Shown one piece after another: positions 1,070 to 58,097 of a stretch of 64,000 nt of DNA (the first letter of the stretch is position 1; each line of letters opens with the position of its first letter). The position numbers and the translations under genes are program-made. The stretch spans positions 560,501-624,500 of the forward strand of contig CM040099.1 of assembly GCA_022496805.1 (NCBI GenBank). Reading direction: 5' to 3'. Origin of the DNA: Pohlia nutans (taxonomy: Eukaryota; Streptophyta; Bryopsida; Bryales; Mniaceae). The notes under the pieces were generated by a model, which was not told where the DNA came from, ran no database searches, and saw nothing but the letters and a program-made list of their open reading frames with translations.

Positions 1070-1178
1070 TGACTAATTGTAGTCATCGATGTGGAGAAGC
1101 TGACTAACTATAGTCATATAGTTCATAAGCATGACTAGCTTTAGTCAGGTATTCCATAAGCATGACTAGCTATAGTCA
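1070..1178. repeat. P1 palindrome array: four 16-bp palindromes, exact 31-bp period
   Basis: Four copies of TGACTANNNNTAGTCA start at 1070, 1101, 1132 and 1163, so the period is exactly 31 bp. The arms are perfectly conserved. The central four bases vary (attg, acta, gctt, gcta), two of them giving fully palindromic centres. The 15-bp spacers are only partly alike: the second and third share CATAAGCA. The array lies in the probable intron of the minus-strand gene and about 200 bp upstream of the first recognised exon of locus A on the plus strand. It looks like a phased set of dimeric protein-binding sites. Confidence 0.85.
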
Positions 1179-1233
1179 TTACGTGCTTGCCTGACGTGAA
1201 GATCAAATACATTCAATGTTTAGAACCAAGCAC

Positions 1234-1395
1234 TTGTAGTTTTCGGGCAAATACCTTGGCCTTTGGCTGCGGTGGCACTGCAGCCTCCTCCTCCTTTGCA
1301 GACTCCTCCTGCTCTGACTGAGTGTCCTCATCCTCTGTCTCCGTCTTCTCGTCGTCAAAAGAAGACTCTGAGTAATGCCATCTAAGACCATCCAA
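1234..1395 (-). CDS. Acidic first exon of the minus-strand hypothetical gene
   Basis: The minus strand reads MDGLRWHYSESSFDDEKTE, then an acidic Glu/Asp run, then VPPQPKAKVFARKLQ. It reaches a possible GTGCTT donor at 1233 and the next exon starts after a CAG at 1018. The donor is weak and no promoter was seen. The 5' end of this frame lies inside the perfect inverted repeat at 1368-1419, so its first residues are shared with locus A on the opposite strand. Treat it as a tentative exon. Confidence 0.4.
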
Positions 1396-1419
1396 ATGAT
1401 CTTAGATGGCATTACTCAG
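1368..1419. repeat. Perfect 20-bp-arm inverted repeat between divergent frames
   Basis: Bases 1368-1387 are the exact reverse complement of 1400-1419, with a 12-bp loop. Because of this, both strands can encode LRWHYS: LRWHYSE on the minus strand and LRWHYSV on the plus strand. It sits exactly where the leftward frame and locus A diverge and looks like an inverted-duplication junction or a foldback insertion. Confidence 0.9.
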
Positions 1420-4400
1420 TTGATAGCATCATCCAGGAGGTAAAAGGAGATGTACCTACGATGCTCACTGCTCTACACGAAGTCAATTGGTACGATTTCT
1501 AATACTGATTAACTTTGCTTTTATGCAGTTTCTGTGTATCATTTCATAACTAGACTAATTCAAATGTATTTGATTTAACAGGAGAAATGAAAAGTCGCAT
1601 GTGACTTCCAACCTTGTCCATAAAGTCTATCGAGTTCAAACCATTGGGGCTCAACCTCTCTCATATTTTAAATCATTGGTGTCACCTGAGGACCTTCGAC
1701 TCTCTGATCAGAAACAGAAGGGTGACAAGAGCCAGACGTGGTTTTCATTGACTGTTGATTCTCTCAGTGCTCTTCTCAATCAGGTATAACCGTTACTTAA
1801 TTGCTGAAGTTTGTGTATAATGTTGGCAATTAGTACTTTCCTAATGTCTATTTAATTGTTTTGTCTTCCTATTGCAGCAAGAGATTGGAGAAGCAACCGC
1901 TGTTGCTCAGAGGAGATTTTATGAGAGATATCCTAATCCAGAAGATTGGACTGCTAAGAGACTTGAGGAACTGGTGCACAGGGCTGTGAAGAAAACCAAA
2001 GTTCATTACAAGGGTGAGTTGAAGAAGATGCTGCTTGTTGCTGATCCCAGCAACATCATACCTTTTCTTGAAGAAGTGAAGTATCACTATGAGTCTCATG
2101 ATGAAGATCCAGAGATGAAGCTTGAGAAGCTTTGGATGCTTGGCACCAGCGTTATGGATCATATCATGAAGGTTCTTTGGCTTGAACGATGGAATCAGCC
2201 TGCAAAACTCCGAGTGCAACTCAGGTTTCTTAAACCTAACTTTAGTGATGACACCTTCTTAATCTGGCTTCACAAGGCTACTTGGTGGTCCCAAGTACAT
2301 TTCAAGTTTTGTTTACCAAGTTCTTTATGTTTTCTATCAGTGCTCTCACAATTTGACATTGGATTCCTATATCACATTGTTATCATTTCATTACATCTTT
2401 CTCAAATGTTAAATTTTTTGCAGTTGACCATGGAAGTTGGGGTCATTTTCGAGTGCATTGTTTGAGATCAGAAGGTCACCATCGATTATCACCCAGACGG
2501 TAGAGACCCAATACCCACCATCTATGATTACATTGAAGAAATGCGAATTTCACTCTGGGACACTGCTTTCTAAAGAGAATTTGCTGTTGATAAAGGCATC
2601 CACAAGAACAATACAGTTGACAAGCAATATCTGTTCAAACCTGCATTGCACCGTGTCTTGTACCGATACTTTAAGTATATTTTGTTTCCGGCAAAGGCCG
2701 TGTCTAGGTCCCCTCCATTATTTGTGAACTATCTTGATAAGGAAAGTGATGAGTTCATGCTCACAGAAGGGCTTATGAAACAGTGGGATATTGTGCACTG
2801 GGACCGCTGTGGGTGGTACTTAGATTGTCCGGTTTGACCAAGCCTCCTTCATTTGACATTGCCCTCCGAGACTCCCTCGAGCCTACTCTGATTCGAACAG
2901 GTACAGAGAAGGACACAGCAACGCCTGAGAAGGCAGCTGCTTCAACGCAAAAGACAACCACGACATCCAAGCGTGGTTCAAAACGCAAGGCTGATGCAGT
3001 TGAGACCTCTGCACCAGCGGCTGCAGTTCCATCTATTCCCACTGTGGCCAATACCGCAGCACCACCACCAGCGCAGAGTCGACCTCCACCTGTGGAGACC
3101 CCAGCTGTGACAGTAGCCGAGCCTGAAACGAAGAGATTGAAGTTGTCCAGTGCAGGCCCTTCTACTCCAACGGTGTTCCTTTCTCCCCTGAAACGAGCAC
3201 CCATGTTGAGCAAGCCCGGTGTTAGTGTTGCAGAGTACACTTCTCTTGACCTTCTTGTCAACGACTCTTTCTTGCGAATGGCAAATGAGAAGAAAAAAAC
3301 CGGTCAATTCTGCCCAGAGTATAATGAGATCGTGGAGTTTTTGAAGAAGGTGAAAACTATTTCTATAATTTTTTGGTCTACTGTTTGCCAATTGTTATTT
3401 GTTTGTGTATTGTAGTCTCAATATTTGATTCTCTATGTTACAATAAGATTGTGGAGTTATTGAAGAATGTGAAGAGTACATTTTGTTTCTGATTAATTGT
3501 TTGCCAATTGGTATTAGTTAGTGGATTTTAGTCTCAATATTTAATGCTCCATGTTTCTTCATTGTGATACAGGTTTCTAGCTCTAGACAGCTATTCTTTG
3601 ACAATAAGGCTGTAGAGAAACCGGGGGTTGATCTACTTATTGCAGATTATCCAGATGGCTTGAGGGTCCCCGGTGTTTCAGACCCTCCATCTCAGGTTCC
3701 TAATTGGAATGAGAGTCTTGAGGGTCTTTTGAAGGTCACCATGGGATTTGCGTATGCTTATCTCCATGACAATGGTGCATTTCTTCTTTTTTACCCTGAC
3801 AGTCCCATTGTCAAAAAAGAAGTAATGTCCTATTTTAAAAATTATAAGATGAAAGAAGTTGATGAGTGGACAATCATCAACTACCTCCATCTAGCGAATC
3901 CGCTCCATCCATCTAAAAATGTGAGCTCCTCTTACTTTTAAACTTTCTTCAAATTGTATTTCTAGGACATGTTATGTAATATGACACCGTATGTATTAAT
4001 ATTGAGTGTTTTTTGGTAGACTTTGAAGTTCAAGGCGGTTCTTCTTGCCCGTGATGTTCCCATTACTGTTGCCCGGCAGCCTCCACCTCTAGTTATTGTA
4101 AAAGACCCGTCCATTCCGCAGGTCGACCTAGCGTGCGATGATGTTCTTTTCAATGCTGTGACGCTAGAGTCACAGCTGTTGAGGAAGGATACAGGGAGAA
4201 CATGGCGTGGTCCCAAAGAGAAGTCAGAGGTGTTGATGAAATTGTTTGTGTATGGTTTAACTCCAGAGAACGGTATCGTAGCAGACCTAACGGCATCCAC
4301 AGGTAATTTCATTCTCCTTCATTGAATGCTAGAATCAATATCATGTGACTTTAAACCCTTTGTTTCTAATAAACCTTTTCTACTCTATTGTGCAGGTGCG

Positions 4401-4940
4401 TCTATCCGTGCAGCACGGGCTTGCAACCGTCATATTGTCGCACTTGAAAGCGACTCAAAGCTTTTTGCTGAGGTCTTGAAGCCCCTCATTGCTCCTCAGC
4501 CACGGACAGCGCTACCTGAGACCGCTCACATCAACCTTCCTGATTCCGATGACGAGACCGTTCCTGACGAGCCCCTTGACTGTCCATGTGAGTAAGTTTC
4601 AATGTTTATTTAATGCACCTTGCAAACACTAGTTAGTACATCTTCATCTAAATACGTTTTCTAATACTTTTACACTTCTCTTGTTTGCAGTTTGACAAGG
4701 ACTAGACCACTACAGCGGCGCCGTTTTAACCTTAGAAAGTCCTTGCAGAGTTTGGTCAGCCCTGATAGTTCCCCTCAAGGACTTCCAGTGTACGTAGAAG
4801 CATTGGCAACGGCATTTGCCAATGCTAGTCCTAGCCCTAGTGGTTCTTCATGCTATTCTACACCGCGTCGGCATTATGATCCTCGTGTGCTTTCATATGT
4901 CGATGTGAGTGCTATCGAATCTGATACAGATTCACTTTGA
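1376..4940 (+). pseudogene. Locus A: DNA-methylase-fold-like gene, eight exons, with stops
   Basis: Exons at about 1376-1489, 1582-1783, 1878-2294, 2424-3349, 3573-3920, 4020-4302, 4396-4591 and 4691-4940 are joined by GT-AG introns of about 70-220 bp, with matching phases where I checked. The product is colinear with locus B. The C-terminal half resembles a permuted N4/N6 DNA methylase: VDLLIADYPDG stands where (D/N)PP(Y/W) is expected. Later come WRGPKEKSEVLMK and ADLTASTGASIRAARACN, which resemble the SAM-binding motif I region. Exon 4 has in-frame stops at 2463 (TGA), 2571 (TAA) and 2835 (TGA), then shifts frame near 2835 into a Pro/Ala/Thr-rich linker. The 3' exons remain open. It is probably a pseudogene. 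The altered DPPY-like motif suggests the family may not be a working methylase. Confidence 0.7.
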
Positions 4941-17265: not shown

Positions 17266-17939
17266 GCCATGGGTAGTTCGCTTGCGCACTTTCGCATTGG
17301 GTAGTTAGAAGGTGAAACCCTAAGACACAAGTCTTATGGACTTGGCAAGTTTAGAGACGACCGTCTACTTGAGTGTGGAGGGAGTTGTGGTGTTAGAGTG
17401 CAGAAATTAGGTCTAAAGAGAGGCATTGAGAAGCACACATAAAGGAAACAAGGAAGAGGACAATGAGTGCAACTGAATTGGGGAGGAAGGAGATAGTAAG
17501 TGTGACTAAACAAACGAAGAATAAGGAGTTGTCTAAGAAGGCTGTCGTCGCAAAGGAGAGTGAACGAGTGAAGAAAAGCAAGAAGCGAGAAAGAACAAAG
17601 TTCACCAATTCAAAGCAGAAGAATAAGAAGAAGCTCACGAAGGGAGTGCCAAGCATTGAGGGACAAGGGACTCCAGCAAATTTGAGCGAGAGTGAAAACG
17701 AGGAAGAGGGAGGAAGTTGGAGAGGGAGGCGTAAGGTTCGATCGCTGCATCTTGATTCAATAGTCGACGTGGAAGACGCAAGCAAGGCGTCGAAGACTTC
17801 TGCAGCAACGATTGAGCACCACGAAATAGAGACACCAAACCAAACAGAAGAAATTGTGGAAATTGTAAGTCTAACACCATTTGAATTAACCTTGTTAAAA
17901 CCCATGTAGGGAGTGACCATGGATCTTGTCGCAACACAA

Positions 17940-19607: not shown

Positions 19608-19621
19608 GGTTATGGGCCCAC
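19608..19621 (+). other. Half-tRNA primer binding site of outer copia
   Basis: GGTTATGGGCCCAC directly follows the LTR. It is complementary to the anticodon stem-loop of initiator tRNA-Met rather than to its 3' end. This is the half-tRNA priming known from Drosophila copia. Confidence 0.8.
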
Positions 19622-28827: not shown

Positions 28828-28832
28828 AGACT

Positions 28833-41066: not shown

Positions 41067-44000
41067 GAGTAGAGAACATGATCAGGGGGGTGAAGACATG
41101 AAAAGCAACGGCGGGTGGTCCAACAACACATCTTAGAATAAAGGATCCATGTCCCAGATCAATACAAGTATGAGAGAAGACAAACACATGCAATAGGTCC
41201 CGAAAACACAATGAGCATTTACATGATTCCGATTTACACATTATATTTATACAAGGTGGCGTACAAAATTAATGATACAAAATGTAATTACAGTTCGAAG
41301 ACCCAGACAACGTCACTCCTACATAACAAGGCGACCCTGAACTAACGAATCCCCGGGAAGTCGTAAAATTGGCCGGAAAAGGCTAAGGACTGATTGAGCC
41401 CACGACGGATGTGGGCCTAGAGAGGATCAGACGGTTCAAGCGGACCACGCCCCATCCGATTATCCTCCACGTACGCACGCAGCTGGCCCGGTGCACAGGA
41501 GGAGTGCACTGGCGAAGCCACGGAGCCAGGGACCCCATGAGGAAGTCGTCTCTAGTTTTAGAACGGGACCAGGATTCTAAGAAAATTGCGTTTCCCGCCT
41601 CATTGCACACACTCTTCTCGAGGGAATCGTCTATGAGGAGGGTGTTGTCCTTGTCAATAACAGCCCCATTGGAAATGGAGAACACCCGTTTGGAGAGGTC
41701 CTTGAAGAAGATCTCCTTGGTGCCAGACAAGTCCTTAAGGTGCTGCCCCTCTGAGATTTCAACCTTAGTGCAGAAATCCTGCCCCATGATCTCGTAGGGC
41801 TTTTTGGCGCTATAGAAGAGGAACCCCGCGATGAGCTCGACGGTGGACCTCCTCATGGAGCTCCAGACGAAGACATGATCGGCGACCTCGGCGACGATGG
41901 CGAGGAACTCCGCCAGACGGGGACGAGTGTAGACAGCCTTCGGGCCAACTACTGTGGGATGCGACGACGAAAAGAGGTGCATTTCGATATGGTTGACCCG
42001 CGCAGATTTTGGGATCTGGGACCTATCGATGCACTGGCAGAGAATGCCGTTCAAGTCGAAAACGATATTCAACCACTTCTTCCGCGGTAGGGACCCTATA
42101 GACGATACACTCCGCTACACGGCGACTCCGCTACACGGCGACTCCGCTACCTACCTGATCAAGGCAAACACAGAACAAGTGGAGTTACCTGATTGAACGC
42201 AGAAGCAGAGACAGGGGAGCCAGAGAGTGGGGCAAAGCATTTCATCCCACTAAGTGAGGGCAGGACACCCTCCACATGTGATGGTTTCAGGGGCAGCGGA
42301 CGGAGCACACTTTTAAGCAATGTCGGCTGGACAAAAACATGGAAAATGAGAAGACATTAGGCAAGGATATTCAAAAAATGAGCTCCTCATATATTAAATT
42401 TACATAGTCAATATATTATACAATCATCCGGTAAAAAAATGTCGCCGAAGGGGCAGCTATGCACACATCACAAAACTACATCCGGAAGCCGTGAATCTAC
42501 ACTATCCTACAGGAGGTTGTCGCAACGAGGCGGGTCGACAGACGAGGCACTCCCTCCTGTCAACCAAAATGAATAGAAATAAGAGTCTGCATCCGGGCAA
42601 TGACAGATTGATGGAGGTAGTACATTACTTCCGTCAAGTGGCATCCCGGCGACTCATCAATATTCATAAGGGTTTGAAAGGTCAGGGGAGTGTACCTGAT
42701 CTAGGAGACTGTGTGAGTCGTCGTCGACGAACTCCACGGCGGGTACGATCGGTGCCGGCTCGGGCTGAAGCAGCAGAGCGCCGTCTTCGTAGTCTACAAG
42801 CTCCTCATCTAAAGCAAGTGGCGGACAGCCGCCGACCTCTGCATCGGCATGCGGGGGAGTCAACCGCACAAAATCGAATTGAGTCTCGGCCTCAGCAGGC
42901 AGGGCGAGGGAGGCATCCTTGGGACTTGGACGAGGCACAGCAGTATCCTCGAGTCGAGGATGTCCAGAATTATCCTCGACTCAAGGATGGTGGTGTACCG
43001 GGGAGGTACGCGCGGGGATCTCTTCATGAGGTTCGTTCAGTTGAGCCCGAGGGGAAGCGCTGCCAACGGAATCCTGAGAAGCAGGAAGCGCTGCAGCAGA
43101 TGTAACCGCAGCTGGAGCAGGCAAGGAGCAAGACATATCCTCGGGTCAAGGATCACGAGGAGCATTGTAAGCGGGAAGGTGGAGGCCCGAGTCCTGAGTA
43201 CCAGTGGTGGTGCTCACCGCCAAATTCATGGGCCCAGCAGACGGAGTAGAAGAACCCGCGTTTTGGGAGCTCCTAAGGTCGTTTAAGTACTTGGCCCTCA
43301 ACTTTGCCATGAATTCCTCTCTGGCTTTGGCCTCTGCATCCAGTTTGGCTTTGGCGAGCACCTCATCGTACTGCAGTTTACGCTTTGCCTTAGCCGCCTC
43401 CAACTCCTGAACCTTTCTCATCAAAGCTTCCTCATTCTCCCTCTTCAGCTTCTTCCTTGCCAGTTTCTCTTCCCACCAGGAAAGCTCGTAAGCAACGCAG
43501 TCGTTCTCTTTGCCATCGACAGAGGTCGAGTTGCGTTTCATTACTTTGAGCTTCGCGATTTGCTCTTCGATGGGCTCAATCTCACTGGTGGACGACGGCG
43601 CAGGGCGAGCGCTCGGTTCTGAGACAACATTTGCAACTGAAGCAGACGGTGCTGGCTGATCGTCGTCGGAGTCGCTGAGCTCTATATAAGCAGTTGAAGC
43701 AAAGTCGTCAGCGATCGCCTTTCCCTTGTCCCGACTCCGTTTTGGGGGAGGAGGACCAGAAGAGCTCGGTGGCGCTGCTTCTTCGGATTGCTCAGGAGCA
43801 GGAGGAGCAGGAGGAGAATCCATGGCGCGAGTATCCTCGACTCGAGGATCCGGGGGAGGAGAACTATGGGCCGATCGACCTTCTATGGCTCTAGGTCTCT
43901 GGGGAGTCCGTTTCCTTGCCGCCCGAGGCTTGTCCGTCGTGAAGTCGGGATCGTCATCCTTGTCGGAAGCTCCATCGCTCGACGAGCCGTCCTCATCTTC

Positions 44001-46170
44001 TCCATCATCTTCCTCCTCGCTACGCCCGCCAGGAAGATGAGTCCTGTACTCGTCGAACTGCCCATAGACGTCCTTGTCTTCCTCGTTGCGCTCAAGATCC
44101 GCCCGGTCACGGTCCTCCTCGTCAAGGTCCAGCTCCGCATTTATGTCCTCTAATTGTTGGTGTCCAGCATCACTGGACCGTGCAGGAGGGGGTGATGACT
44201 CCTCGTCGCTGTAGCGCAGGACTGCGGCTGTAACGGGCTTGATGTAATTCCCCATGTACGGGGAATTTCCGAACAGGAAGTCCTTCATGTCCAGGGACTT
44301 GGCCTTCAGCGCCAAGGATTTGAGTTTGTGTAATCCCACGTTGCTGGCGATCCCGTAGTAGTGCAACCCATACATCTGCAGCGTCAGCAAGTGAGTGGTT
44401 AGTCATCTATATGAAAAGGGGGCACGGTATAGGTAGTTAAACTTGGAGACTTATCCTCGACCCGAAGATAGAGGAGGAGTGAGAGCAGAAATCTTAAGGA
44501 AATGGCACTTCAAATGCACAGACGTGAACCAAACAAACATGCAGTGCATGCATTAAAACGACTGGAATTATCTACGAGTCGAAGATAACAGCCCAGAAAT
44601 GGTGGAAGGCACTACCTTTGCAGCCAGCATGCACTTGGCACCCGTGTAGACGCCAAAGAAGTTCTCCCCTAGAGAAGCGAAGTTCTGGATGATGTCCAAG
44701 TAGAACTCCATCCGCAGCTCGCTTGAGTTCGATCGAAACTTGGACTCGTGGTTCTCGTGGGGATCATTGTAGTAGGCGATATTGGATGCAACGTACTCTG
44801 GCTTGATGAGCCCAGGAATGTACGACGGTACATCTCGCTGATAAAAGAAGTGGAGATTAACGGAGGGCAGCGCAGCCTGCCGAATCGGAATGTCATACAG
44901 GCGCTCAGCTTTGCATGCCTTGTAGACGGACTGCTTGTATTCCCAGTCCTTGAAATGAACACCGATGAACGCAGTCGCCGCTGCGTCATCCCATGTGTCC
45001 GCCGTAATCCAGAGCCATATTTTCGGGTCCTTTATTGACGGGTCATTCATCTGGTGGAGCTTCTCGAGGAATGGCATAACCGGAGCCGGAGCGACAGGGT
45101 TGTCGGATTTTTTGTGCTTCGGAACGTCCCGAAGATCCGCAATCCCCAAGCTCAGAGGCCTGGTACTGGGAGCGTAGTCCCACGACGCTGGATTCATGAC
45201 GAACGCCATGGACGGTCCGTCATGGGCACGAAGTTGAATCTTGCCGGTCTGCTTTGGTACGTGTTTCTTGAGCGAAACGAAGCGACTGAACATGTCTCTC
45301 AACTCTGTGAATTTCTCCCCCATCTCGTCCGCCCGCTCGTTGACCGCCTTGTTTGTCCGGCGCATCGCGAAGTAAGTTTTGCTGGGAGTGGCGAGAAGAA
45401 AGTCCCACGTCGCTGAGGAGAAGGAGCACGACTTCTTCCAGTCTCTCCATTTCTGCCTGTCGATGTTGCCGTCGTCCTTCACAAATGTGAGGGACTTGTC
45501 AACATTCACCAACTCCTCGAGAATGACCTTCTTGCGCTTTCGGCGCTTAAAACCCACTCACTAGCACAGTAGTTGTCCAGCACCGGCTTTTTCGATTTGA
45601 GAACGGAGACTTTAGGGTATGGCAGCGTTCTTTTGGGGGTCCTCCCGAGTAGATGTTGCACGTATGTCTTGAGGTCGTCGTCTGTAAAGTGCCCCATGTG
45701 CTTGAAGAACTCGCGCTTCAACTCGTACCTTTTCTCTCCGCCCTTGTTCTGTTTGTAAGGCAGGGACTTATCCGGATTGATGATGTCCCCGTCGGTGTAC
45801 CTGGTTAGAAAACTCTCCCACATGGCGTAGTGGTCGTCTTCCAGCGTCATGATCGTGACCTCATGTTTGATATCAGCGATCCCCTTCATGTTGTTTCCTT
45901 CTTTGTTGGGATTGATACTTTGAAATCGACTGAGGATCATGGTCACGAAGGTCTGCAAAACAGTCAAGATCATATCTGATGTTAGAGGCAGATATTGATC
46001 TGATTATTCTCGAGTCGAGGATAATGTCTCCATTTTTCAAGTGCAAACCGCTAGTCTCAGGAGCACATCACAGAGATTATATACAGTTAGGAAATGATGA
46101 GGGTTATGATATGAATGTTTAAAATTTGAAGTATTCAACGAAGGCCTTATCCTCGAGTCGAGGATAATTT
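40476..46170. repeat. Dispersed P3 palindromes in the locus D region (10 copies)
   Basis: Copies of TATCCTCGANTCGAGGATA or close variants start near 40478, 40540, 42943, 42973, 43136, 43833, 44452, 44569, 46005 and 46149. Six lie in exons and four in introns. In exons they are read on the minus strand as P-(R/W)-(V/L/I/P)-E-D. Confidence 0.85.
41383..42108 (-). CDS. FCP1/NIF-type HAD phosphatase-like protein
   Basis: PRKKWLNIVFDLNGILCQC opens the domain. The HAD nucleophile motif DxDG(T/V) appears as DLNGIL: the first Asp is kept and the second, the general acid, is Asn. Downstream are VFVWSSMRRSTVELI and LLIDDSLEKSVCNEAGNAIF, both matching the FCP1/small C-terminal-domain phosphatase layout. 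The substituted Asp suggests weak or no phosphatase activity. The coding frame runs upstream of the first Met toward a 16-bp tandem repeat at 42108-42145, so the N-terminus is unclear. It lies on the same strand as locus D and may be part of that transcription unit. Confidence 0.6.
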   Translation of the reverse strand, partial: VSSIGSLPRKKWLNIVFDLNGILCQCIDRSQIPKSARVNHIEMHLFSSSHPTVVGPKAVYTRPRLAEFLAIVAEVADHVFVWSSMRRSTVELIAGFLFYSAKKPYEIMGQDFCTKVEISEGQHLKDLSGTKEIFFKDLSKRVFSISNGAVIDKDNTLLIDDSLEKSVCNEAGNAIFLESWSRSKTRDDFLMGSLAPWLRQCTPPVHRASCVRTWRIIGWGVVRLNRLILSRPTSVVGSISP

Positions 46171-47625
46171 ATCATACAATGTGATAGTATATACCTGCCA
46201 CTTATGTGGTGCTTGGATCGCCTTGTTTCCCGGACCCGTGCCTCTGCCCCGTTCATGGTTGGCCGTTCGAAGTGTATCCAGATTAGACGACCGCTGATGA
46301 TCTGGTTGCCCCATGTTGGTTGGGCGTGTTCGAGGTGATTGGTGGTGTTATAGAATTTCGAGATGTTGTGCAGCTTAAGCGGGTCCAATGTCCAGACGAT
46401 GTAGGCGTCCCACGTTCTGAGCTCTTCACGCCGCTTCTTGTCACATTGCCCTCTCTGCATCTCCTTTGAAGCTGTAATGCTGTGCTGGCCGTCAATAATC
46501 ATGAATTTACCAAGCTGGATGTCCTCCCATTTGGCAGGTGGTTTCTTTAACAACTTCATGTCATTGTCGACGGGAGTGAGGCACACGACCTGCCGCTGCT
46601 TGATGTCTGCAAGTTGAAGGAGCTTATCCTTGCACTTCTCCAGCATATGCTTCTCCAGCTTTCGGATGATGTACTCCTCATGAGCTGGAAAGCATTGGTT
46701 GATGGATACCGGGAATTTTGCTTCCTTGCCAAAGATGTAGCAGTCACCGTGCTGCTCCCAGAACTCTTTGCGCTGTTGCGCAAACTTCAGGTACTCTGCT
46801 GTTGGCATCGGCTCTTCGGTAGGTCTTCTGTCCAGCTCCGTCAATGCGGAACCCGAGCTACCAGCAGTTGAGGGACGGGCGGCATTTGTTGAATTCCTCC
46901 TCTTCTTCCTCAATTCAGCTGCCGGAGCATCTTTGGCCGTTGACACTCGGGGATTTGAGCGGGCTCTCTTACCCCCACTGGCGCGACTACCTCCACGTGG
47001 TGTTCTCGACTGGGATCTGTTCTCGTCGCGAGATTCTGGGTCGCGGGGTCGCCTTTCTCGGATTGCTGAGGCGGGCGTTCTCGTTGATTGTCTACCCGCG
47101 TGTTTGTCCAGCGACATCCAGATCTGGTTAAGCTTTCGCGACAGGATTGTTGCTTTAGCATTTTTCCATTCGCTGAATTTCTCGAAGGCTTGCTTCAATT
47201 CTGGTGTGGATTGGCTCATGGAAGCGCTGAGGTCGTCCATGTCAAACCTCGGCCCATGCTCGTGCACTTTGATGACCAGGGAGTGCAGGTGAGATTTACT
47301 CTTGCCGCTGTTATCCATTTCGTTCAGGGTGATGACAAGGTAATCGCTGTGGTAGGAGTCGACGATTGTGACCTTCTCATTGTTGTTCCAGACTAGGAAT
47401 CCGGGTCCTCCTTTCTCAAGGTGCTTCAGGTAGACATATTTCTTGAACTGGCTGACCCCAAATGTCCAAGCTTCCACGCAGTCCTTGAATTTCCACAGAG
47501 TTCCGTGGGTGGACTTTATCTCTGGTGGGATGAAAGGCTCCGACTCAAATGGATTCTCAAATGGCTCCATGTATGGAAGAGTTGAGGAATAGTCATAAGT
47601 GTCCACTTGAGCCATTGGAATAGAT
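42696..47625 (-). pseudogene. Locus D: ParB/DGQHR-like domain fused to a methylase-like fold
   Basis: Exons are about 47625-46195 (ATG 47615), 45952-45558, 45557-44616 and 44375-42696. The first holds a basic Ser/Arg linker and then KFMIIDGQHSITASKEMQ, resembling ParB/DGQHR folds (DGQHRxxA). The next two lead to ELRMEFYLDIIQNF and FFGVYTGAKCMLAAK. The fourth begins MYGLHYYGIASN; together they mimic the methylase SAM-site layout. The C-terminal part is acidic, Pro-rich and partly coiled coil. A one-base change in a G run near 46250 and a frame change near 45560 (or a small intron) disrupt it. Two in-frame TGAs (43146, about 42978) both lie inside P3 palindromes. ParB-methylase fusions are known in phages and bacteria. 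Confidence 0.6.
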
Positions 47626-47676
47626 CTGCACATAACATTGGGAATACGGTTTGTTAGCAATCGCGCAGTCCTATAG

Positions 47677-48390
47677 TATCTTCGACCCGAGGATCGGTTT
47701 TGTATTTGGGATGCGTTGGGTGTTGTAAGTTATGCGGACCTCATCTTCGACTCGAGGATAATCTTCTCTGGGTTCGCTATGGTTCAGCTGAAATCATTGT
47801 TAGCATTGCGGACTCAGTTATGAGTATCGTCGGGTCGAAGATAACGCGAAAGCGTTGTCTAGAATTGGTGGAGGCGACCAGGTTTACTGATTTATCTCCC
47901 GGATATGTTCTGTTTAGTTGATGGTTGATATCTTCGAGTCGAGGGTATGACGTTGTTATCCTCGATGCGAGGATAATGTTTTACGACTCCTGTGACTAGG
48001 TATTGGGATTGCAGCAGCCGGTGCATTGTACGGGTTTGGAGAATTATCTCCGCATCGAGGATATTTGTGCGGATTTTTTGCGTGGAGTTACTTTTGTTTT
48101 GTGTTTTTGTCTCCGCCGTGTGCTTGTGATTGAGATTTATCTTCGGGTCGAGGATATTAGTACTGGCAGGGATGATAGTTTCTTGTTTTATGTGTCATTA
48201 ATTTCAAATTTGCATTCCCTGATTGGGTTGGTTGACTGTTATCTTCGAGTCGAGGATAATTCTTTGTCTGTTATTGGTATTTTATGGTTTAGGGTATGAA
48301 TTTCTCTTGTGTTTGTAAGTTATATCTTCGAGTCGAAGATAATAATGCTCGAGTGCAATAGTATTATTCTCGTGTTGAAGATATGTTTCT
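47677..48390. repeat. P3 spaced array upstream of locus D
   Basis: Ten palindromes start at 47677, 47742, 47825, 47929, 47957, 48045, 48138, 48240, 48323 and 48365. The spacing is 28-104 bp and the spacers look unique. The array starts about 50 bp upstream of the first recognised exon of locus D, in its likely promoter or 5' untranslated region. Most copies keep both TATC and GATA ends. Confidence 0.85.
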
Positions 48391-48404
48391 TAAAGTCCAT
48401 GATA

Positions 48405-48740
48405 ACTATCCTGGATTTGAAGAGAATTATCCTCGAGTCGAAGATAATTATTCTCTAGTCGAAGATAATTATCCTCGAGTCGAAGATAATCATGTTGGAG
48501 TTGCTGTTATTCATCTTGGATTCGAAGAGAATTATCTTCTATTCGAAGATAATTATCCTCGATTTGATGATAATTATCTTCGATTCGAAGATAATTATCC
48601 TCGATTCGAAGATAATTATCCTTGAGTCGAAGATAATCATCCTCGATTCGAAGATAATTATCCTCGAGTCGAAGATAATCATCCTCAATTCAAAGATAAT
48701 TATCTTCGACTTCAAGGCACTTTCGCTAATTTCGAAGATA
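48405..48740. repeat. P3 tandem array, 21-bp period, about 16 units
   Basis: Head-to-tail units such as ATTATCCTCGAGTCGAAGAT (plus one base) follow the spaced array directly. Because 21 is a multiple of three, the array is open in several frames and reads as (N/H)YPR(V/F)ED repeats on the plus strand. That frame has no other support. A few units are degenerate. Confidence 0.9.
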
Positions 48741-49780
48741 ATTTTCTTCCGAGAGTTCATGATACATTCAGTGTATTGATATGGAAATCTGTAGCTTTTA
48801 CAAGAAGTCTAACATTCTAAAGTGTGAGGAGTACCTCTGAAAACTTGGGTGCTTGTCCTTGAAATTCTAGCTCCCTCCTGTGCAATAATTCGAACCCCAC
48901 CTCCACTTCGAGAAACCCTCGTGCTATGCTAAATCTGCGAACCTTATTTTATCTCAAATTAGGAACAATACGCTTGCCTTCTGGCCAGAATTTCAAAGCT
49001 AACATTACTACGAGATCTCTTTAACCCTAATCAACCAAGCAGAACAACACACAAGGAAACTAGCAATTCTGTAGCAATTATGTAGCAATTCTGTAACAAT
49101 ACAAACAATCAAGCTAGAGCAAATGTGTAACAATTGTATCATTTTTGAATATAAGCACCCTTAACCCTAAGCTCTTCTTAAAGAATTCCAACAATTCTAA
49201 TAGTTTTTACAGTATCTGTATCCATTTTAACGCCTCTGATACTTAGCACCCTAAACTCTACGGAAACAGAGAAACAGGCAAGGAAACAAGCAAAAACAAA
49301 CAATGGGAAGCAAAAACAAGAAAACAAGCAAACAAACAAAAACAAACATTCATGCAAGCAAACAAGCAAATAAACCATAAGTTGGACGGTCGAAGTACCT
49401 CACGAAAGCTGGACTTGCTCCACCTTCAAGCACACACCTCCACAACAGCAAAAACACTAGAAAGAGAGCTTCCACTGCATTCGCAAGTCACTATACCACC
49501 AATTGCCCAATCGCCCACTCGCCGAATCAAAATGTACAGAGGAGGAGCGGGCAATCACAATCAAAATGTACAGAGAGGATGAAGGTAGCGTGGAGTCACG
49601 CGAGCGTGAGGAGGAGCGGACACGGCGGGGCAGCGTGAAGATGCGACGAGCGACAGCAAAAACTCTAAACCCTAAGCGCGCGGGTGCCTGGGGAGAGAGA
49701 TGACCTCCCAACCTGCAGGCTCGGCTTCGGCGGTTGGCTCGGCTCCGAAGCTTGGTCCTGGCTCGGTACCGAAGCTCGGG
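48741..49780. other. No supported gene
   Basis: This stretch holds AT-rich sequence, an AAACAAGCAAAC-type low-complexity run at 49260-49375 and a GC-richer part at 49500-49700 with short basic frames that I do not support as genes. Confidence 0.5.
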
Positions 49781-49784
49781 CAGG

Positions 49785-49890
49785 GCACCGAAGCTCGAGC
49801 AGGGCACCGAAGCTGAGGTGTTAGGCTTGGCACCGAAGCTGAGGTGTTAGGCTTGGCACCGAAGCTGAAGTGTTAGGCTTGGCACCGAAG
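49785..49890. repeat. Tandem repeat of 29 bp, three to four units
   Basis: GGCACCGAAGCTGAGGTGTT (plus AGGCTT) repeats with few changes. The flanking GGCACCGAAGCTCGAGCAGG is a related variant. Confidence 0.85.
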
Positions 49891-52800
49891 CTTGGCTCCC
49901 CAGCATGAGTTGATCAAGCCTATAAAGGCTAAAAGGCAATTCTATTATTTTGAACTCCTAAATGTCCCAGCATCTAGAAACTGGATGACGAACTGATTCA
50001 AAGCCTTGCAACTTTCTCAATGACGAAGTGATTCAAAGCCTTGCAACTTTATCAAACAACCTCGCATGTCTTTCATCACAGTCACATTTCTAAGCCTATT
50101 AAATTTTGTACCAATTGCAATAAATCTCTAACAATGGAGAATTGTTGATAATATTCGAGAGGCCTCTAAAGGCAATAACGTCAAACTTGTTGCCTAGGTA
50201 TAATTCCATAGAATTGGTATACAAAGAAAACTTACAGATTATGCATCGTGGATTCAACCCGTACGATTTGATTCAAAAATACTATGAACAATACTTTATT
50301 ACATAAGTTGAAAGGTTAAATAAGATATGTACTCTGAATTTGAATTTTTTTACGTTTATTTTGTTTCCTTCTTTGTTTTATCCTTTAGCGTATTGATTGA
50401 ACACTATTATTAAAGATTTGTTTTAAAATGTTTGATGAAAAACAAAAATGGAGTTTATGTACAAAGCAAAGTTGTAATTGTCAACATATTAAAGAAAAAT
50501 GTCTGTATAGTTGGATTCATCAAAATTATTCTCAATATTTTTCAATTAATTTTGCACGGTTTTTGCTTGAAACTTAATTAAAAATCCCAAAAAGTAAACA
50601 AAAATTGAAAAACATTATAATGAACTTGGAATAACACGTAGTACAAGATGGTAAGGTCTCCAATTTTTTACTATAATTATAATTGAAAATCATGTGTAAG
50701 GTTTCATTTCCTGAACTAAAACTGAAATATCACAGAAACTACTCGAGGAACTTCGTTTGTAATTTTTAGAAAATTCACATCATCTTATTTTGAAGATCCA
50801 TACCGTACAAATGGTACTTAACTAGCACAAGAATCAAGAGACTTTTGGATGGATGAAAAATATCACCGTATATAGTGAAGGGACGCGTCAGAATTCATAC
50901 AACATCTAGAAAATGAAGGTTGGCGCGTCAAAGGGTGCACCAATACTAATAAAGGTAATTCTATCAAAACCAATGTAAAAAACAAAATTCTAAATTCTAT
51001 TTGGAATTCTTAGACACGTCCAACCATTTTTCACGAAGAATTATAGATTCTAAGCCTTTGAACTTTTTCATACAACCTCGCGTCACTAATTATCATGAAA
51101 GTCCCTTTTTTAGCGTATTTCTTGCGACGTAGAGCTGTTGATAATTTTGGAGGGGTCTCCAAATGCAATTACGTCAAACTTCTAATAAAATACAAAGAAA
51201 TGCGTGCCACGATCTTTCAACATTATCCTGTTGATATGATCAAAGTATTTTGTAGTACTGTTTGTCGGGTGGACACTAGTAGATTGACATTACAAATAGA
51301 CAATTTATTCACGTTGCCACAAACCACGAATATAACATAATTATAGTGCATTCATTTGACTAAAGCACAATAGATTAACTCCTAAACGTCAACACTTTAA
51401 CCCCTAAATTTCCTTGTGTTTTTGGGAGCTTGAAACCTCAAAACTGCGATTTTCTACCTCTATGTACTCCCGGGGATGTGAACCAAGTTTTTTTACTTCT
51501 TTTAGAATTCCAACCGTAAGATCTTGTACCTAAGCCTATTCATAGCTACTGTTTCAAAAATTGACCGTTGGATGTTTATCATTTGCAAGATCATAACATC
51601 CAAAGTTTGTGCAAAAGTTTTTCGGGGCATTGCTTGGGAGGCATTGTCTCCATAGTGCAAAGGGGGACTTGAAGATTGTTACTCCAAACATTTTGCTCAT
51701 ATTTTTTTCCATGTAGAGAACTAAGTTGGGTACGCTCATGCAAAATTTTAGAGACTCATTACGCGTTTCAAACCTCCATCCAAATTAATTTCCGGAAGTA
51801 GGTATAAAAATGGCAATTTGGTGAAACATGCATCACATTAATTGTATTTGATTTTTGGAAAAAATGAACGGTGATTAGGTACCTCTATGATTTAATAAAT
51901 TTTAGGCGAAATTATTTTTTTAAAATTTCAAAATCTCAAATTTTGACAAATTTCGAAAGAAATGGATGTGAAATTACAAAAAACCTTGGAGGTTGCTGTT
52001 CTTTATTTTGGAGGCTGCCCTTGTCAAGCCAAGAATATAATCAACATGGGTCACTTCAAATTCTGAGCCTAAATGTGGTGAAGAGCATGTCTCCAAAAAA
52101 GAAAATTGAAAAAATGATTATAATAAAAAGTTTTTTTCTGCCCTAGTTGGGCTTGAAACCAAAAATTTCAATAAAAAAATTATAAAATCCGAATTTGACT
52201 TTGTAATTTTTACCCCACACACCTTGTATGTATGACCACGCCCACGCCAAATTATAGTCTAAAATTCTTAATTTAGACCTTCCATCTAAGCTGCCCGAAA
52301 CAGCAAAAAGCCATTTTGGCTTTTAAGGGCCTTTAGGGGTTAATCAATTAACAGATTCAAATCGTTATCACGTTCGCTAAACAAATTTTAACTTATAGAT
52401 TTTAGTATTAAATATTGATGGTAATATTAGTGAATCAAACTGTATGGACGGATTCATTTGGAATTTAAGATTCAAAATCTAGATGTTTCATTTGGTATAT
52501 CAATTCCAAAATAATCTTCTAAATAGTCATTTAGGATCATTTTTCTAGCACCGTCAATTCCATGGTCATACCTTCATAATGTTGATGATTATTTATGAAA
52601 AATTATAAATCATTCAATGTGATATTTAAAGTGTGCAAATTATAGTGCTTTGACTTTTACAAAAGAGGTGAGGACCTTTAGGGGTTAATACATATAAGCC
52701 TTGTTTTAGAAGGGTTTACTATAGGCATTTATATGGGTTAAAAAAATGAGCTTTCGTCTTATTGACCCTAAACTATAGAAGTGTTGAATTACAAAATAAG

Positions 52801-55440
52801 TTGAAAATTTATTAGGTGAAGAACAACTTCCCATTTACAGCTTCAATATTACTCTAAAATCAATTCAGCTGAAATATAACTCTTAGAAAAATCAATACTC
52901 TGAATTTTTTGAGTAAGACAATAAATTCTATATCTTTTTGACCGTAACCAAAAAATTACATCAAAAAGAATTCATTTGAGTATTATAGAATAAGTACAAA
53001 ATCTCAAATGGTATTTCATTGAAGTACACAAGGTTCTTCCTGGTTATTCTAGAAACGTGATATACTTATGCAAGCGATGAAATTATTCCTTTATTTTGTT
53101 CTTCTCCCTTAACTTGATCAGCCAAGCACTTTGAGACTACCCTAGACGCTGGACATCTTATTCAGTCTTGATTTGTGACTGCACGCGGTGTGCCTTTCGT
53201 TCTTCGATCGCATACTTCTACACAATTTTTTTTTGCAAAACACATAATGAAGTATAGTTAAATAGGATCATTATTTACAGAGGACAACAACGTACTGACA
53301 AACCGCCAAAAAATTAGATACTTCTCACCGAAACATTCATTTGATGATTTTCATCGAAGCATTAATGATTTTCATCCAAGGATTAATGATTTGCATTCAT
53401 GATGCATCCCCCTCCTACAAGTACATCGAGCTCAATCATAGCATATGCATGAAGTATATCTTATGTACGTCATGAGTGTACTCTTATCATGTGAATAATG
53501 AATTATCATATGAAAGATTGAAGTAAGGACATGATTTAGGGTAATTAAGTACCTAGGATAGTGCTTATGAATTTCACCATCATGTAGTGCTATTTAAAAA
53601 TTAACACCAATTATGGGAAGTTTCTTACAATATAAACATTTAGGTGTCTTACTTATGTTTACAAATTAAATTGAAGACAACGATGACAAATTATTGAATC
53701 CTAAGTAAATTAAGTAACAAACCCCGGGATATGCAATTGCACATTTCGCTAAAGGGGCAATTAACATATATGTTGTTCAAATTTACAAATTTATTTTAAA
53801 GAAATTTAAATTTTGATTTCTTTTAGGAAAATAATTATCAACATAATAGATCACCACGTTCACCCAAAAAATGTGGGGTGTCTTTTATACGAAGTAATTT
53901 TAATTTGATATGAGTAATGTCTGGTTTTTTTAAACCAATTTTCTGGAATTCTAGATATATTCATAGGATATAGGTGTAATACACCTTAATGAACCTAAAA
54001 ATATTAAACTATTTCACTTTATATAATTATATACATAATTTAGAAATTATATATAGATGAAATGTATAGATTCCGAACACGAGACCCTATCAGCAAAGGT
54101 TCCAACAATTAACCGTATGATAATTATGAAATTATTACGTTTTTGGTCATATTCATTGAATAAGTAGCATTTTATTTGTACTTTATAAAATTTGGGTTAT
54201 GAGTTATTATATTATATTTTATTTGTAGCAGCTCAGAACACATTGCAACCGACATCACCATTCTATCACATGTCACATGCAACTCTAAGTATGTTGGACT
54301 TGAATAATAGTATGTCGAATTAAATTTTTATCCCTTCAAACCAAATATGTTCAGCGCGATTAGTATAGTCTGAAATAATTATAGTTTAACCCCTTCATGT
54401 TCTCACTTTTTTTAAACTTGGCAGATTTAAAAAGATACATAAAAAAAATCAAGTAAGACTGAGGGATATTTTGTCTTTCATGAATGAATAAAAGTTTATT
54501 ACGAACTTAAAATGTAACGATCGTTTGTAACAATTACGATTAGTACAAATAAAATATTGACAATCTAGTAATGAATTCTCGGGGTTCGGATGGGTTCAAA
54601 TGTAGTAGTCTAAGTGTAGTAATGTTTGGCGTTTTTTACGTAGCATATATTAGGTAGTTCACTTTTTCAAGAGCACTTTTGGAATAAAATCTTCGAAATG
54701 AGTAGTGGAGCACTACAACGTGAAATGAGGCATTGAACTTGCACAAGTCATCCCGTTTCTAATGGGACCACACATGCATAATCCAACTTCCCAGATAAGT
54801 TTGAAATACAAATTTCACACTGCAAGAAGTGCATGATAGATGAGAAATCGGAGTTCAAATTTGTTCATCATGAAAAAAATGCATGGTTGGGCGGTTAGGG
54901 GTTAAATGCAACCCATTGAACTAGGTAATTTAGCATTTTTTTAACCATGTGCTTATGACCAAATTTACGAAAATCAACGTAAATAAATAAGTTTCAATTT
55001 TTATACAAATTATAAATGAGTATTAGTGACGCACTATATATTTTTTCGTATATGATGAATGTTATGAATTTAGTAGTATAGATTTGATTGAAAAATCATA
55101 CTGTAATATAATGTATCTACGTAAGTGCATGAGGAAAAAATACTTTCTCATGCGATTTGTCATTGAATTATATTAAATGTAATACTTCTTTATACCTATT
55201 TCCGAACAACTATATGGATGTGTGTGTATCATATTCAATCCAAAATCCAAAATAAGATTTGGAATTGAATAGAATGATGGAGAAATAATACCCATCAATG
55301 TAAATGCATTCAAGTGGGAGTGCAAGGTACATGCACTAGAGTACCAAGTGCTCTCAAGGGTATTGTATGTACGTTGGATGAATGGCGGCTCACATGAGAT
55401 GGAATTCCTTTCAAGTACTCTCCTTCTTCCACATTTCAAT
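49891..55440. other. AT-rich gene-poor stretch
   Basis: About 5.5 kb has no frame above 100 codons and no transposon domain I recognise. Scattered TTTAGGGGTTAA-like words occur at about 52330, 52680 and 54890. The base composition differs clearly from the flanking P3-bearing regions. Confidence 0.6.
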
Positions 55441-55524
55441 ATTTGAATGTGTGAACTTTTTCTCATTCCTCATTCACTCCTTCCCCTTCCTCATTCATCT
55501 CCTCCTTGTTTTTCTTTTTTGACC

Positions 55525-55995
55525 ATGGGTTCTAGGCACCCAACCCATGGAGTTTTGTCTCTCCCTTCTCGTCCTCACTCTTTAGGGGAATTAACAGGGT
55601 TTTTGTGGTTTGTTTACAGTTCAGATGCGTGTCGGAGGAAGAGAAATCTTCCTCCTCATCCATTGTTGCGAGGGATTGTTAGTGGCGCAGATGATTTTGT
55701 GTGGAACTACCACTGTGGCGAAGAGATGGCACGGTTGGAAGCTTTTTCTGGCATTTCATATGCTGAAGTGGCAGGAATTGTGAACCGTCCTTCCACAAAT
55801 TTATTTTGTGGAGTGGCGGTGATAATAAAGGATTGTGGGTGCGTGCAACTTGACTTTTGTGATTGTGCTCCCACAAATTCGAATGGTGGCGGGACCAAAG
55901 AAGTGATCGAGATATCATCAGACACATCTTTCTATGCCACGGCGGAAGGTGGAGAATCGGATGCGGCATCGGTGGGGAGTAATCGCCAATATTAA
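55525..55995 (+). CDS. Hypothetical protein, up to 157 aa
   Basis: The frame runs from MGSRHPTHGVLSLPSRPHSL to SDAASVGSNRQY. A TTTGTTTACAG acceptor at about 55620 suggests a small intron before SDACRRKRNLPP. The middle has YHCGEEMARLEAFSGISYAE and CGCVQLDFCDC, a short Cys cluster. The tail is acidic Ser-rich (EVIEISSDTSFY). I do not recognise the family. It lies on the same strand as, and upstream of, the P3 array and the DUF7869-like gene. The 56.0-56.9 kb stretch after it has no supported gene. Confidence 0.4.
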   Translation: MGSRHPTHGVLSLPSRPHSLGELTGFLWFVYSSDACRRKRNLPPHPLLRGIVSGADDFVWNYHCGEEMARLEAFSGISYAEVAGIVNRPSTNLFCGVAVIIKDCGCVQLDFCDCAPTNSNGGGTKEVIEISSDTSFYATAEGGESDAASVGSNRQY

Positions 55996-56982
55996 TTTTG
56001 ACTTTTGCAGCACAGCTGGGTTACTTGGTTTTGGAAGCGGATTTTGAGTTTAAAGCGGTTTTGATTTTGGTTTTGCAGTGGCACTAATAGTTTGTTTGAC
56101 ATAGCGGCATTGTCACTTTCGGGGGACCCAATTTTTAGAATTCAGGATGTTCATAAGTGATGATTGTAAAAGTGTAGTTGGCCAGCGTGCTCCTCTGACC
56201 ATAGTGAAAGTCAGTGGCTTGTAATCGTTTTTTTAATATAGTAACCTGCGAGTTGCACAGTGGCGGAGTGCTTTGCATTTATGTGCGAAAGCCGTTGCGA
56301 ATTCACTGTAGAATAGGATGCCGTTTTGGAAAGGCATCCAAGACGGCGGAAACTTTGGGCGCTTCTTCATTCTCATCTCTCCCGCGCGTTCTCATTTTGT
56401 ATTGCGTCTCTCACTTTGTTGTCTCCTCCGACCACTCGCCGCTCTTGTCTATCTTGCTTGCGGCCTCTCCCTGTTCTTGTCGCTTGTGTATTGTAGGACT
56501 GTTGTGTGCGCTATCGCGAGACTGAAGCGCTCCGAATGTAAGTGTTGATGTCATTATGTGCCGTATTATTTTGCTGTGTGTTTTGAAGATGGTGTAGGGG
56601 GCGACAGGATCTTGGTTATGAATTGTTTAGCATTACGCTCAAATGTGCAGTTCAATGGTTGTGTGGTTGAATTAGCAGTTCAATTCAGCGGTTCAATCTG
56701 TAGGTCAGTGGTTTTCTGCATTCAGTGCTTGATTAGTTCAGTTGCTGGGGTGCAGACTAGGAGAGTGCACATTGCAGGGATTGTTTTCTTATTCATTGAG
56801 TGTATGCTCTCTTTTCAATTGTGCATGCCATTGCTTATATCCCAAGCTTGCGTTAGCTATGCAAATTGGAATGCATTGTGATCCAATGCATTGAAGTGGA
56901 TACATATTTAATTTGCAACTCGGAATTGAGTGGAATTGAACTGTTCATGTGTTCCATCGATTCAAAGCTTGATTCGTTCTGT

Positions 56983-58097
56983 TATCATCGACTCGAGGAT
57001 AAGTTGAGTCGTTATTGGGTACCTTTATACTGTTGCAGAATGGTTTATCTTCGAGTCGAAGATAACGTGTATATATTCCATGACAGAACATACATTTAAG
57101 AGTACCATGGATGTCAAACCGGGACACTTCAGTCACAGAACCCATTATCCTCGACTCGAAGATAAGTACAACTGAATATACGACATGATGAACACAGAGT
57201 TAATTATCCTCGTGTTGAAGATAAGTACAACAGAATATACGATACTATTTATTGAGATAAAATTATCCTCGAGTCGAAGATAAGTGCAACAGACAATACC
57301 ATAGAACTTATAGAGACACGGGTATTCTCGAGTCGAAGATAATTTCTGAATATATTTACAGTTATCTCATATACCAGTGTCTACTACAAAATCATGATTG
57401 AAAGAATAGAACTAAACCACATATCCTCGACTCGAGGATAAGTCATATAGGGTACTCAAAGGTACTGTGATAAGCGAATACGTTTATCCTCGAGTCGAAG
57501 TTAGGCATATAGACATAAACTGTAGGTAATACAATACGTACCAAGGTAAAATAGTACTATCCAGTATCATTGATGTGACCGGGCCACTTATCTTCGAGTC
57601 GAGGATAATTAGAGGGGTGCGTCATGGTATATATCACATACATAATAAGTTATCCTCGAGTTGAGGATAACATACTCGTATCTTCGATGTTTGATTGTTA
57701 CATTCGTCCGATGCTCCGCATTGGGCAGTACCTGAAGCATTCAGGAACTAGTTATCCTCGACTCGAGGATAAAGTTGATAGGGACATACTGTCCCCCGAA
57801 CTATAAACCAGAAGTCCAGACATGACTTACACGTTATCATCAGTATCCTATAACCATATCCTCGTGTCGAGGATATGGATCACTTTGATACACGTAGGCG
57901 CTGGCTCTTCTTACAGACAAGAAGTGCGCCTTCTGTTTTGGGCTGTCTATGCACGGGGTTCGGTCTAAATGAAATCTGGTGGAGTTTGTCGCTCAGTTAT
58001 CGTCGACTCGAGGGTACTATAGACGGTGTTATAATATGCGGACATCCGAGCCAGGAAGCAGTACAGCCAATAGCATTATCCTCGGACCGAGGATAAT
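56983..58097. repeat. P3 spaced array upstream of the DUF7869-like gene (14 copies)
   Basis: Palindromes start at 56983, 57046, 57146, 57205, 57264, 57323, 57422, 57485, 57589, 57651, 57753, 57857, 57998 and 58077. Most gaps fall in two classes, 59-63 and 99-104 bp. Spacers after 57146 and 57205 share AAGTACAACNGAATATACGA, so part of the array grew by duplication of about 60 bp. The other spacers look unrelated while the palindrome stays nearly constant. The last copy is 70 bp before the ATG at 58166. Confidence 0.9.

What the first reader, a model, noticed from the sequence alone, without database searches (positions are those of the whole stretch)
1070..58097. Each main methylase-like locus sits beside its own palindromic array
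Locus A has P1 (16-bp palindromes, 31-bp period) about 200 bp upstream. Locus B has P2 (48-bp palindromes, 65-bp period) in intron 1. Locus D has P3 (19-21 bp palindromes) upstream and internally. The palindromes are unrelated in sequence, but the pairing recurs. Locus D also carries a ParB/DGQHR-like motif, and bacterial ParB binds parS palindromes. A plant family of ParB/methylase-like proteins with self-linked cognate sites would be new. Locus C lacks its 5' part, so it is silent on this point.
Basis: partly seen in the sequence, partly recalled or inferred. Interest (0 to 1): 0.8.

Follow-up and report, generated by a model that had tools for sequence, protein, structure and literature searches.

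The report
Moss-like transposon carrying conserved palindromic arrays
One of the three claimed gene-and-palindrome pairings is real, because gene and palindromes belong to the same 22-kilobase jumping gene in a moss-like genome, while the other two look like accidents of broken elements lying side by side.

Summary
P1, P2 and P3 are real (reversed-pattern control 0 each). The general pairing fails. B and C are one gene split by nested copia elements; an uninterrupted copy exists. B lost its 5' part at 18362|18363: ten other copies carry no P2 in the 2.75 kb read, and 0 of 34 listed P2 loci lie within 12 kb of 82 listed copies. P2 accompanies a SWIM-finger gene or its divergent neighbour (5 of 5 loci read). 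A is cut off at a fold-back; P1 lies beyond it and is dispersed genome-wide. D/P3 is genuine: D sits in a 22.1-kb transposon (39518-61617; TIRs; matching 4-bp TSD in 3 of 4 complete copies) with a DUF7869 gene. Five counted copies have 19-28 P3 sites on the D side and 13-14 before that gene, none outside. Against a related family, sites are 87-92% identical, flanks 58-59%. Best reading: P3 is the target of an element-encoded DNA-binding protein, possibly D, resembling VANC/VANDAL. Binding is untested; D's ParB/methylase labels rest on a motif.

The parts
1070..1178 (.). P1: four TGACTA-N4-TAGTCA sites, 31-bp period
   Evidence: pair pattern at 631 places genome-wide, control 0
2..1018 (-). exon of a minus-strand gene whose apparent intron (about 1021-1252) holds P1; no Pfam family
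   Evidence: splice-like borders read; frames; Pfam (best E 2.9)
1368..1419 (.). fold-back palindrome (24-bp arms, one mismatch, 4-bp loop) where locus A is cut off inside the exon that bears the DGNHR motif in other copies
   Evidence: homologous exon in other copies
1384..4940 (+). locus A, 5'-truncated methylase-like gene with in-frame stops (limits approximate)
   Evidence: 33% identity to BC over 283 columns, E 3e-43
15376..17333 (-). SWIM-finger-like gene; P2 arrays elsewhere accompany it
   Evidence: no supporting Pfam hit
17463..17864 (+). 'exon 1', a charged ORF not found in the ten other BC copies; a 62% identical homologue borders a 20-unit P2 array at C5
17934..18354 (.). P2 palindromic tandem array, about 6.4 units of 65-66 bp
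   Evidence: genome
18363..19350 (+). B: remaining 5' half of a methylase-like gene, starting at the junction with P2
19351..30422 (+). copia LTR retrotransposon (a second one nested in it) splitting the gene; TSD TACAG; LTRs differ at 1 of 259
30428..32693 (+). C: 3' half of the same gene; N6_N4_Mtase domain
39518..61617 (.). 22.1-kb transposon carrying D; TIR AAGGCAATRTTCATTARAATGACACA; TSD AAGG
41383..42114 (-). NIF-phosphatase-like reading frame in the transposon
   Evidence: PF03031, 43.3 bits
42690..44375 (-). D exon 3, low complexity, with four P3 sites; a stop at about 43144 ends the frame here and in C2b, but not in C2a or P0002 (limits approximate)
44612..45952 (-). D exon 2; frame broken near 45556 in the window copy, open over the whole exon in C2b, C7 and C10
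46197..47615 (-). D exon 1 with IIDGQHSITAS; relative P0001 56% identical
46004..46167 (.). two P3 sites in D intron 1; P0001 encodes a P3-like peptide at what appears to be the same place
44451..44588 (.). two P3 sites in D intron 2
47741..48699 (.). P3 array 5' of D, 19 sites, partly at 21-bp period
56982..58096 (.). P3 array 5' of the DUF7869 gene, 14 sites
58100..61151 (+). DUF7869 gene, presumed transposase; split over two frames in this copy
   Evidence: PF25273, E 3.6e-45 for 59319-61151; frames; 272 relatives

Best explanation
P3 is a family-specific cis-site of a 22-kb TIR transposon that carries two divergent genes, D and a DUF7869 protein. Arrays lie in the 5' flanks of both genes and in D's introns, and most likely serve as the binding platform of an element-encoded protein. 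I favour D, acting as an element-specific activator or anti-silencing factor in the manner of VANC on VANDAL, over the DUF7869 protein, roughly 45:30, the rest being other factors; the confidence given below is for an element-encoded binder of either kind together with the rejection of the other two pairings. Shown: one mobile element, presence in each copy counted, restriction to the element, and site conservation while flanks turn over. Inferred: binding, who binds, and the outcome. The A-P1 and B-P2 pairings are not part of this: A and B are 5'-truncated copies of another family, and their arrays lie beyond the truncation points. P1 and P2 appear to be the same kind of family-specific site in other mobile elements (inference).
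For: Element ends, TIRs and 4-bp TSDs: AAGG (window), ACAA (C2a), TAAT (C2b); C7 reads TTCT with one extra base. P3 counts D side/middle/DUF7869 side/DUF7869 gene: 28/0/14/0, 27/0/14/0, 25/0/13/0, 26/0/14/0, 19/0/14/0 in 5 counted copies; 0 outside the element in the stretches held. Window D: 5' flank 19, introns 2 and 2, exons 1 and 2 none, exon 3 four. Site versus outside identity against two loci of a related family: 89.5 v 57.8, 87.1 v 58.7, 91.6 v 57.9. A 56% identical D relative encodes a P3-like peptide at what appears to be the same intron (its DNA was not seen). 4 of 4 further P3 loci read carry DUF7869-region homology. Against the pairing elsewhere.
Against: L001/L002, an element with a left TIR and a DUF7869 gene but no D between them by blastn or tblastn, keeps 10 P3 sites at up to 3 mismatches, so D need not be in cis. 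The conservation test aligns partly through the sites themselves. D has no supporting family match and its exon-1 model is unusable (pLDDT 35). The DUF7869 model has no PDB match at E 0.001, so even its being a transposase is inferred from its place in the element. No copy read has all three D exons open to the length seen in P0002. No expression, binding or methylation data exist here.
Confidence: 0.66

Rival explanations
1. P3 is bound by the DUF7869 protein, as subterminal or promoter motifs are bound by transposase or accessory protein in CACTA elements (recalled), and D has an unrelated role. (This is the other half of the element-encoded reading above.)
For: All 4 further P3 loci read carry DUF7869-region homology, and L001/L002 keep P3 without D; 13-14 sites lie before this gene in each of 5 counted copies.
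Against: The sites are not at the termini: in the window the outermost are about 1 kb from the left end and 3.5 kb from the right. Nineteen sites flank D and each D intron has two.
Confidence: 0.28
2. One reading: ParB/methylase-like proteins as a family each carry their own cognate palindromic array.
For: D with P3. One BC copy at C3 has a 55-copy 117-bp repeat upstream containing some 16-bp palindromes.
Against: No palindrome of 10 or more net pairs in 2.75 kb of any of 10 BC copies and no P1, P2 or P3 there; B and A are truncated before their arrays; 0 of 34 listed P2 loci near listed BC copies; D not homologous to A/B/C. The C3 repeat has only a degenerate counterpart, in L043.
Confidence: 0.05
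3. The arrays are passive satellites spread by slippage and transposition, with no binding function.
For: Tandem 21-, 31- and 65-66-bp periods are typical of slippage.
Against: P3 sites outside the tandem part keep the palindrome while flanks are near saturation, and in the 5 counted copies they are absent from the AT-rich middle and the DUF7869 gene; in the window also from D exons 1 and 2.
Confidence: 0.15

Closest known systems
VANDAL transposons and their VANC anti-silencing proteins (Arabidopsis; PMC5735166 passages, PMC10398659 abstract and outline)
   Same: A plant DNA transposon with a second gene; short motifs, often in tandem, in noncoding parts of the same element; motifs differ between element families.
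   Different: Here the sites are palindromic, the presumed transposase is DUF7869 with 4-bp TSD, and no demethylation or binding has been shown.
Sola DNA transposons (PMC10741241 passages)
   Same: TIRs and 4-bp TSD; reported from the moss Physcomitrella; some over 15 kb.
   Different: No comparison with Sola transposases could be made; the superfamily is a guess from TSD length.
Fungal transposons carrying TET/JBP dioxygenases (PMC12730594 passages)
   Same: DNA transposons of several lineages carrying a DNA-modification gene.
   Different: That enzyme acts on methylcytosine; A/B/C resemble N6/N4 methyltransferases, and D is unassigned.
Bacterial ParB-parS (recalled)
   Same: Palindromic sites linked to a gene with a DGQH-type motif.
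   Different: No ParB family match for D or BC; dozens of sites per element rather than a few parS.

Membership tests
TIR DNA transposon (element carrying D) | terminal inverted repeats and target site duplication at several insertion sites | tested here: met
   both TIRs in window, C2a, C2b and C7; identical 4-bp TSD in 3 of these 4; C10 shows one end, C15a none
Sola superfamily | 4-bp TSD | tested here: met
   AAGG, ACAA, TAAT; C7 off by one base
Sola superfamily | transposase related to Sola DDD transposase | not testable with these tools
   no Sola model at hand; DUF7869 fold search gave no match at E 0.001
VANC/VANDAL | element-specific motif arrays in noncoding DNA of the element | tested here: met
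   a few sites also lie in coding exon 3
VANC/VANDAL | MULE-type transposase | tested here: not met
   DUF7869, 4-bp TSD
VANC/VANDAL | protein homologous to VANC | not tested
   no VANC sequence was compared
VANC/VANDAL | sequence-specific loss of DNA methylation | not testable with these tools
   needs bisulphite data
ParB/parS | ParB domain | tested here: not met
   D and BC N-terminal parts: no Pfam match listed up to E 10, no PHROGs or PDB support; only DGQH/DGNHR motif resemblance (recalled)
N6_N4 methyltransferase PF01555 (A, B/C) | Pfam model above cutoff | tested here: met
   BC 28.3 bits against cutoff 26.7; A only 18.1, below it; PDB DpnA E 2.7e-6 for BC
N6_N4 methyltransferase PF01555 (D) | Pfam model above cutoff | tested here: not met
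   no methylase family for D exons

The most novel reading that the evidence does not exclude
D is a transposon-encoded, sequence-specific DNA-binding protein of a new type that recognises P3 palindromes at both promoters and in its own introns to keep the element unsilenced. This would be an independent, palindrome-based counterpart of VANC in mosses, and P1 and P2 would mark further such systems in unrelated elements of the same genome.
Probability: 0.3. Interest if true: 0.75.

Novelty: new variant of a known kind. Interest (0 to 1): 0.48.

Why it matters
If P3 is bound by an element-encoded protein, mosses hold a second, independent example of transposons that evolve private DNA sites together with a private protein. 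Three unrelated site families in one window suggest this may be common in this genome. It also warns that a gene beside an array in repeat-rich DNA is not evidence of pairing: two of three pairings here dissolved once other copies were read.

Tried and rejected
Homologues of B/C in the protein collection: none at E 0.001 among 7992 scored candidates. P0001 in viral and prokaryote contigs: none. Structure of D exon 1 from two sequences: pLDDT 35, not used. DUF7869 model (of the Ceratodon relative P0021, 31 sequences, pLDDT 71.8) against PDB: nothing at E 0.001. Profile and BLAST comparison of D with BC and A: no homology; a MAFFT alignment of both placed the motifs apart and was not used. A MULE label for the SWIM-finger gene was considered from memory; Pfam gives nothing, so it stays unassigned. 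A literature search for DUF7869 found 0 papers; other searches for a transposon-borne ParB/methylase in eukaryotes or palindrome-carrying moss elements listed none that I recognised as describing this, in an open-licence library only and from listings. The test of whether P1 accompanies the minus-strand partner gene did not complete; that gene has no match in the 52 loci held. In one search the joined string lacked two bases of the TSD; the conclusion rests on the L041 sequence printed in the same call. The lists of loci compared were typed and grouped by hand from the places that searches printed (about 100 to 150 rows each, P1 on contig C1 only; BC places are those with an exon-5 match, the window's own included).

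Full report
Setting. The window lies in a 697.8-Mb genome of 332 contigs at C15:560501-624500.

The arrays exist. P1 is four TGACTA-N4-TAGTCA sites 31 bp apart. P2 is a 65-66-bp tandem palindrome. P3 is a 21-bp site, TTATCCTCGANTCGAGGATAA, found 42 times at up to 4 mismatches in the window and 0 times in each of 20 Markov simulations. All three are abundant genome-wide: P3 565/546, P2 787/676 and P1 pairs 631/631 places on the two strands, against 0/0 for each reversed pattern. As the sites are nearly self-complementary, strand counts largely repeat each other.

B and C are one gene. A nine-exon model with GT-AG borders runs through B, skips the insertion and continues into C, with two in-frame stops in exon 3; its first exon is not supported by other copies (below). 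The insertion is a copia element with a second copia nested in the opposite direction; the outer LTRs differ at 1 of 259 positions, and the TSD is TACAG. The copy at C3 (L041) has the uninterrupted sequence. The gene's second half matches the N6_N4 methyltransferase family (28.3 bits, cutoff 26.7) and DpnA and MboIIA in the PDB. A is a relative (33% identity over 283 columns), but scores below the Pfam cutoff (18.1).

B is not paired with P2. I fetched 2.75 kb up to exon 5 for ten copies chosen to spread from 95 to 76% identity. Homology with the window begins between 18363 and 18544 in nine of ten, and at 18781 in L046, a disrupted copy. In the closest, L041 (97%), it begins at 18363, just after P2 ends. 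Upstream, eight of ten copies instead carry a further exon (one with a stop); six of the eight read DGNHR, the others DRNHR and DGNHC. L044 and L046 lack it. None of the ten has a palindrome of 10 or more net pairs and none has a P1, P2 or P3 site. A laxer scan of their first 760 bp (exact arms of 7 or more) gave seven isolated palindromes in five of the ten. By coordinates, 0 of 34 listed P2 loci lie within 12 kb of 82 listed BC places, and 0 of 82 BC places have a listed P2 locus within 5 kb; those lists are the printed parts only. The five P2 loci read in sequence (from the ten places the tool cut out) carry the SWIM-finger gene (4) or the 'exon 1' ORF (1), and none carries BC exon 2 or later in the 3 kb read. 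So P2 goes with the divergent SWIM/'exon 1' unit at 15.4-17.9 kb, and B was truncated next to it.

A is not shown to be paired with P1. A begins inside the same exon that bears the DGNHR motif in other copies, at a fold-back with 24-bp arms. P1 lies beyond it, in what reads as an intron of a minus-strand gene. P1 pairs occur in clusters with similar layouts, such as C1:17033508-17040652 and C1:23890243-23897321, as expected of mobile elements; 0 of 19 P1 loci on C1 lie within 30 kb of a listed BC place. Which element P1 belongs to was not settled, and A's own family was not searched.

A result partly against me: the BC copy at C3 has a 55-copy, 117-bp repeat ending about 200 bp before its first long reading frame, with eleven exact copies of CTCGTCACGTGACGAG. 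Of the nine other copies, only L043 shows a comparable (degenerate, 115-bp) repeat in the 760 bp read, and L048 an 8-bp one. Repeats beside BC genes may recur; palindromic arrays as a rule do not.

D and P3 belong together. BLAST of the window against five regions, chosen because P3 sites recur at a similar distance there, shows a repeat ending at 39518 and about 61617 in C2a, C2b and C7 (and on the right in C10; C15a is partial). The ends are inverted repeats; flanking 4-bp duplications are AAGG, ACAA and TAAT, and C7 is off by one base. The element carries D, a NIF-phosphatase-like frame and a DUF7869 gene. D's exon 2 is broken in the window but open in C2b, C7 and C10; exon 1 is open in C2b; exon 3 ends early in the window and C2b compared with C2a and P0002. 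P3 counts per copy are nearly constant, confined to the D side and the DUF7869 5' flank, zero in the 8-kb AT-rich middle, in the DUF7869 gene and in the flanking DNA held (C15a not counted there, 31 sites at up to 3 mismatches). In the window D gene they lie in the 5' flank (19), both introns (2 each) and the low-complexity exon 3 (4), not in exons 1 and 2. A D relative 56% identical (P0001) ends with a stretch that appears to run into the same intron and reads NYPRVEDT, the translation of a P3 site; its DNA was not seen. P0002 carries three such peptides in a row in exon 3 where the window has two.

Conservation. Against two loci of a related family (L006, L010), P3 positions are 87-92% identical while the rest of the same stretch is 58-59%; the neighbouring coding DNA is 87%. 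The alignment is helped by the sites themselves, but both stretches hold 13-14 sites in 1.2-1.5 kb, so retention stands.

Who binds. Many copies of one palindrome at two promoters and in introns suggest a dimeric DNA-binding protein made by the element. D is my first candidate because of the clustering around it; the DUF7869 protein is the main rival, since L001/L002, with no D between left TIR and DUF7869 gene, keep ten sites. D's labels do not hold up: no supporting match in Pfam, PHROGs or PDB, no homology to BC or A. That D 'is ParB' is therefore not claimed; that it works like a site-specific binding protein is an inference.

Comparison. VANC proteins of VANDAL elements bind short motifs that form tandem repeats in noncoding parts of the same elements and differ between families (PMC5735166 passages; PMC10398659 abstract). 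The logic is the same; the transposase and site symmetry differ, and the proteins were not compared. DNA-modification genes inside transposons have precedent in fungi (PMC12730594 passages). Sola elements share the 4-bp TSD and occur in moss (PMC10741241 passages), a lead only.

Verdict. The finding as written, a recurring pairing, is not upheld: two of three cases are junctions. The third is a genuine and conserved element-specific site system worth testing.

Noticed in passing
19351-30422: Young copia element (LTRs differ at 1 of 259) with a second copia inserted in reverse orientation (LTRs about 23160-23480 and 28507-28827).
   Followed up: partly
10760-12304, 7699-8903, 35384-36426: Three copies of a SWIM-finger-like 3' segment sharing one terminal sequence; a fourth lies in L019:1621-3163.
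   Followed up: partly
12303-13323: A further 3' end of a BC-type gene on the minus strand.
   Followed up: partly
L051:1-6000 and L041:1-461: 55-copy 117-bp minisatellite upstream of a BC gene, with repeated CTCGTCACGTGACGAG palindromes.
   Followed up: partly
41383-42114: NIF-phosphatase-like frame inside the D transposon.
   Followed up: no
40453-40589, 42943-43851: P3 sites inside the exon-3 and 3' part of D, giving HPRxEDNS-type peptides; copy number differs in P0002.
   Followed up: partly
31244-31591 and 3594-3941: Where active N6/N4 methylases have (D/N/S)PP(Y/F/W) (recalled), BC reads VDMPEN and A reads ADYPDG, so activity is doubtful.
   Followed up: no
62960-63494: GC-rich nested tandem repeats (24-, 87- and 101-bp periods among others).
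   Followed up: no
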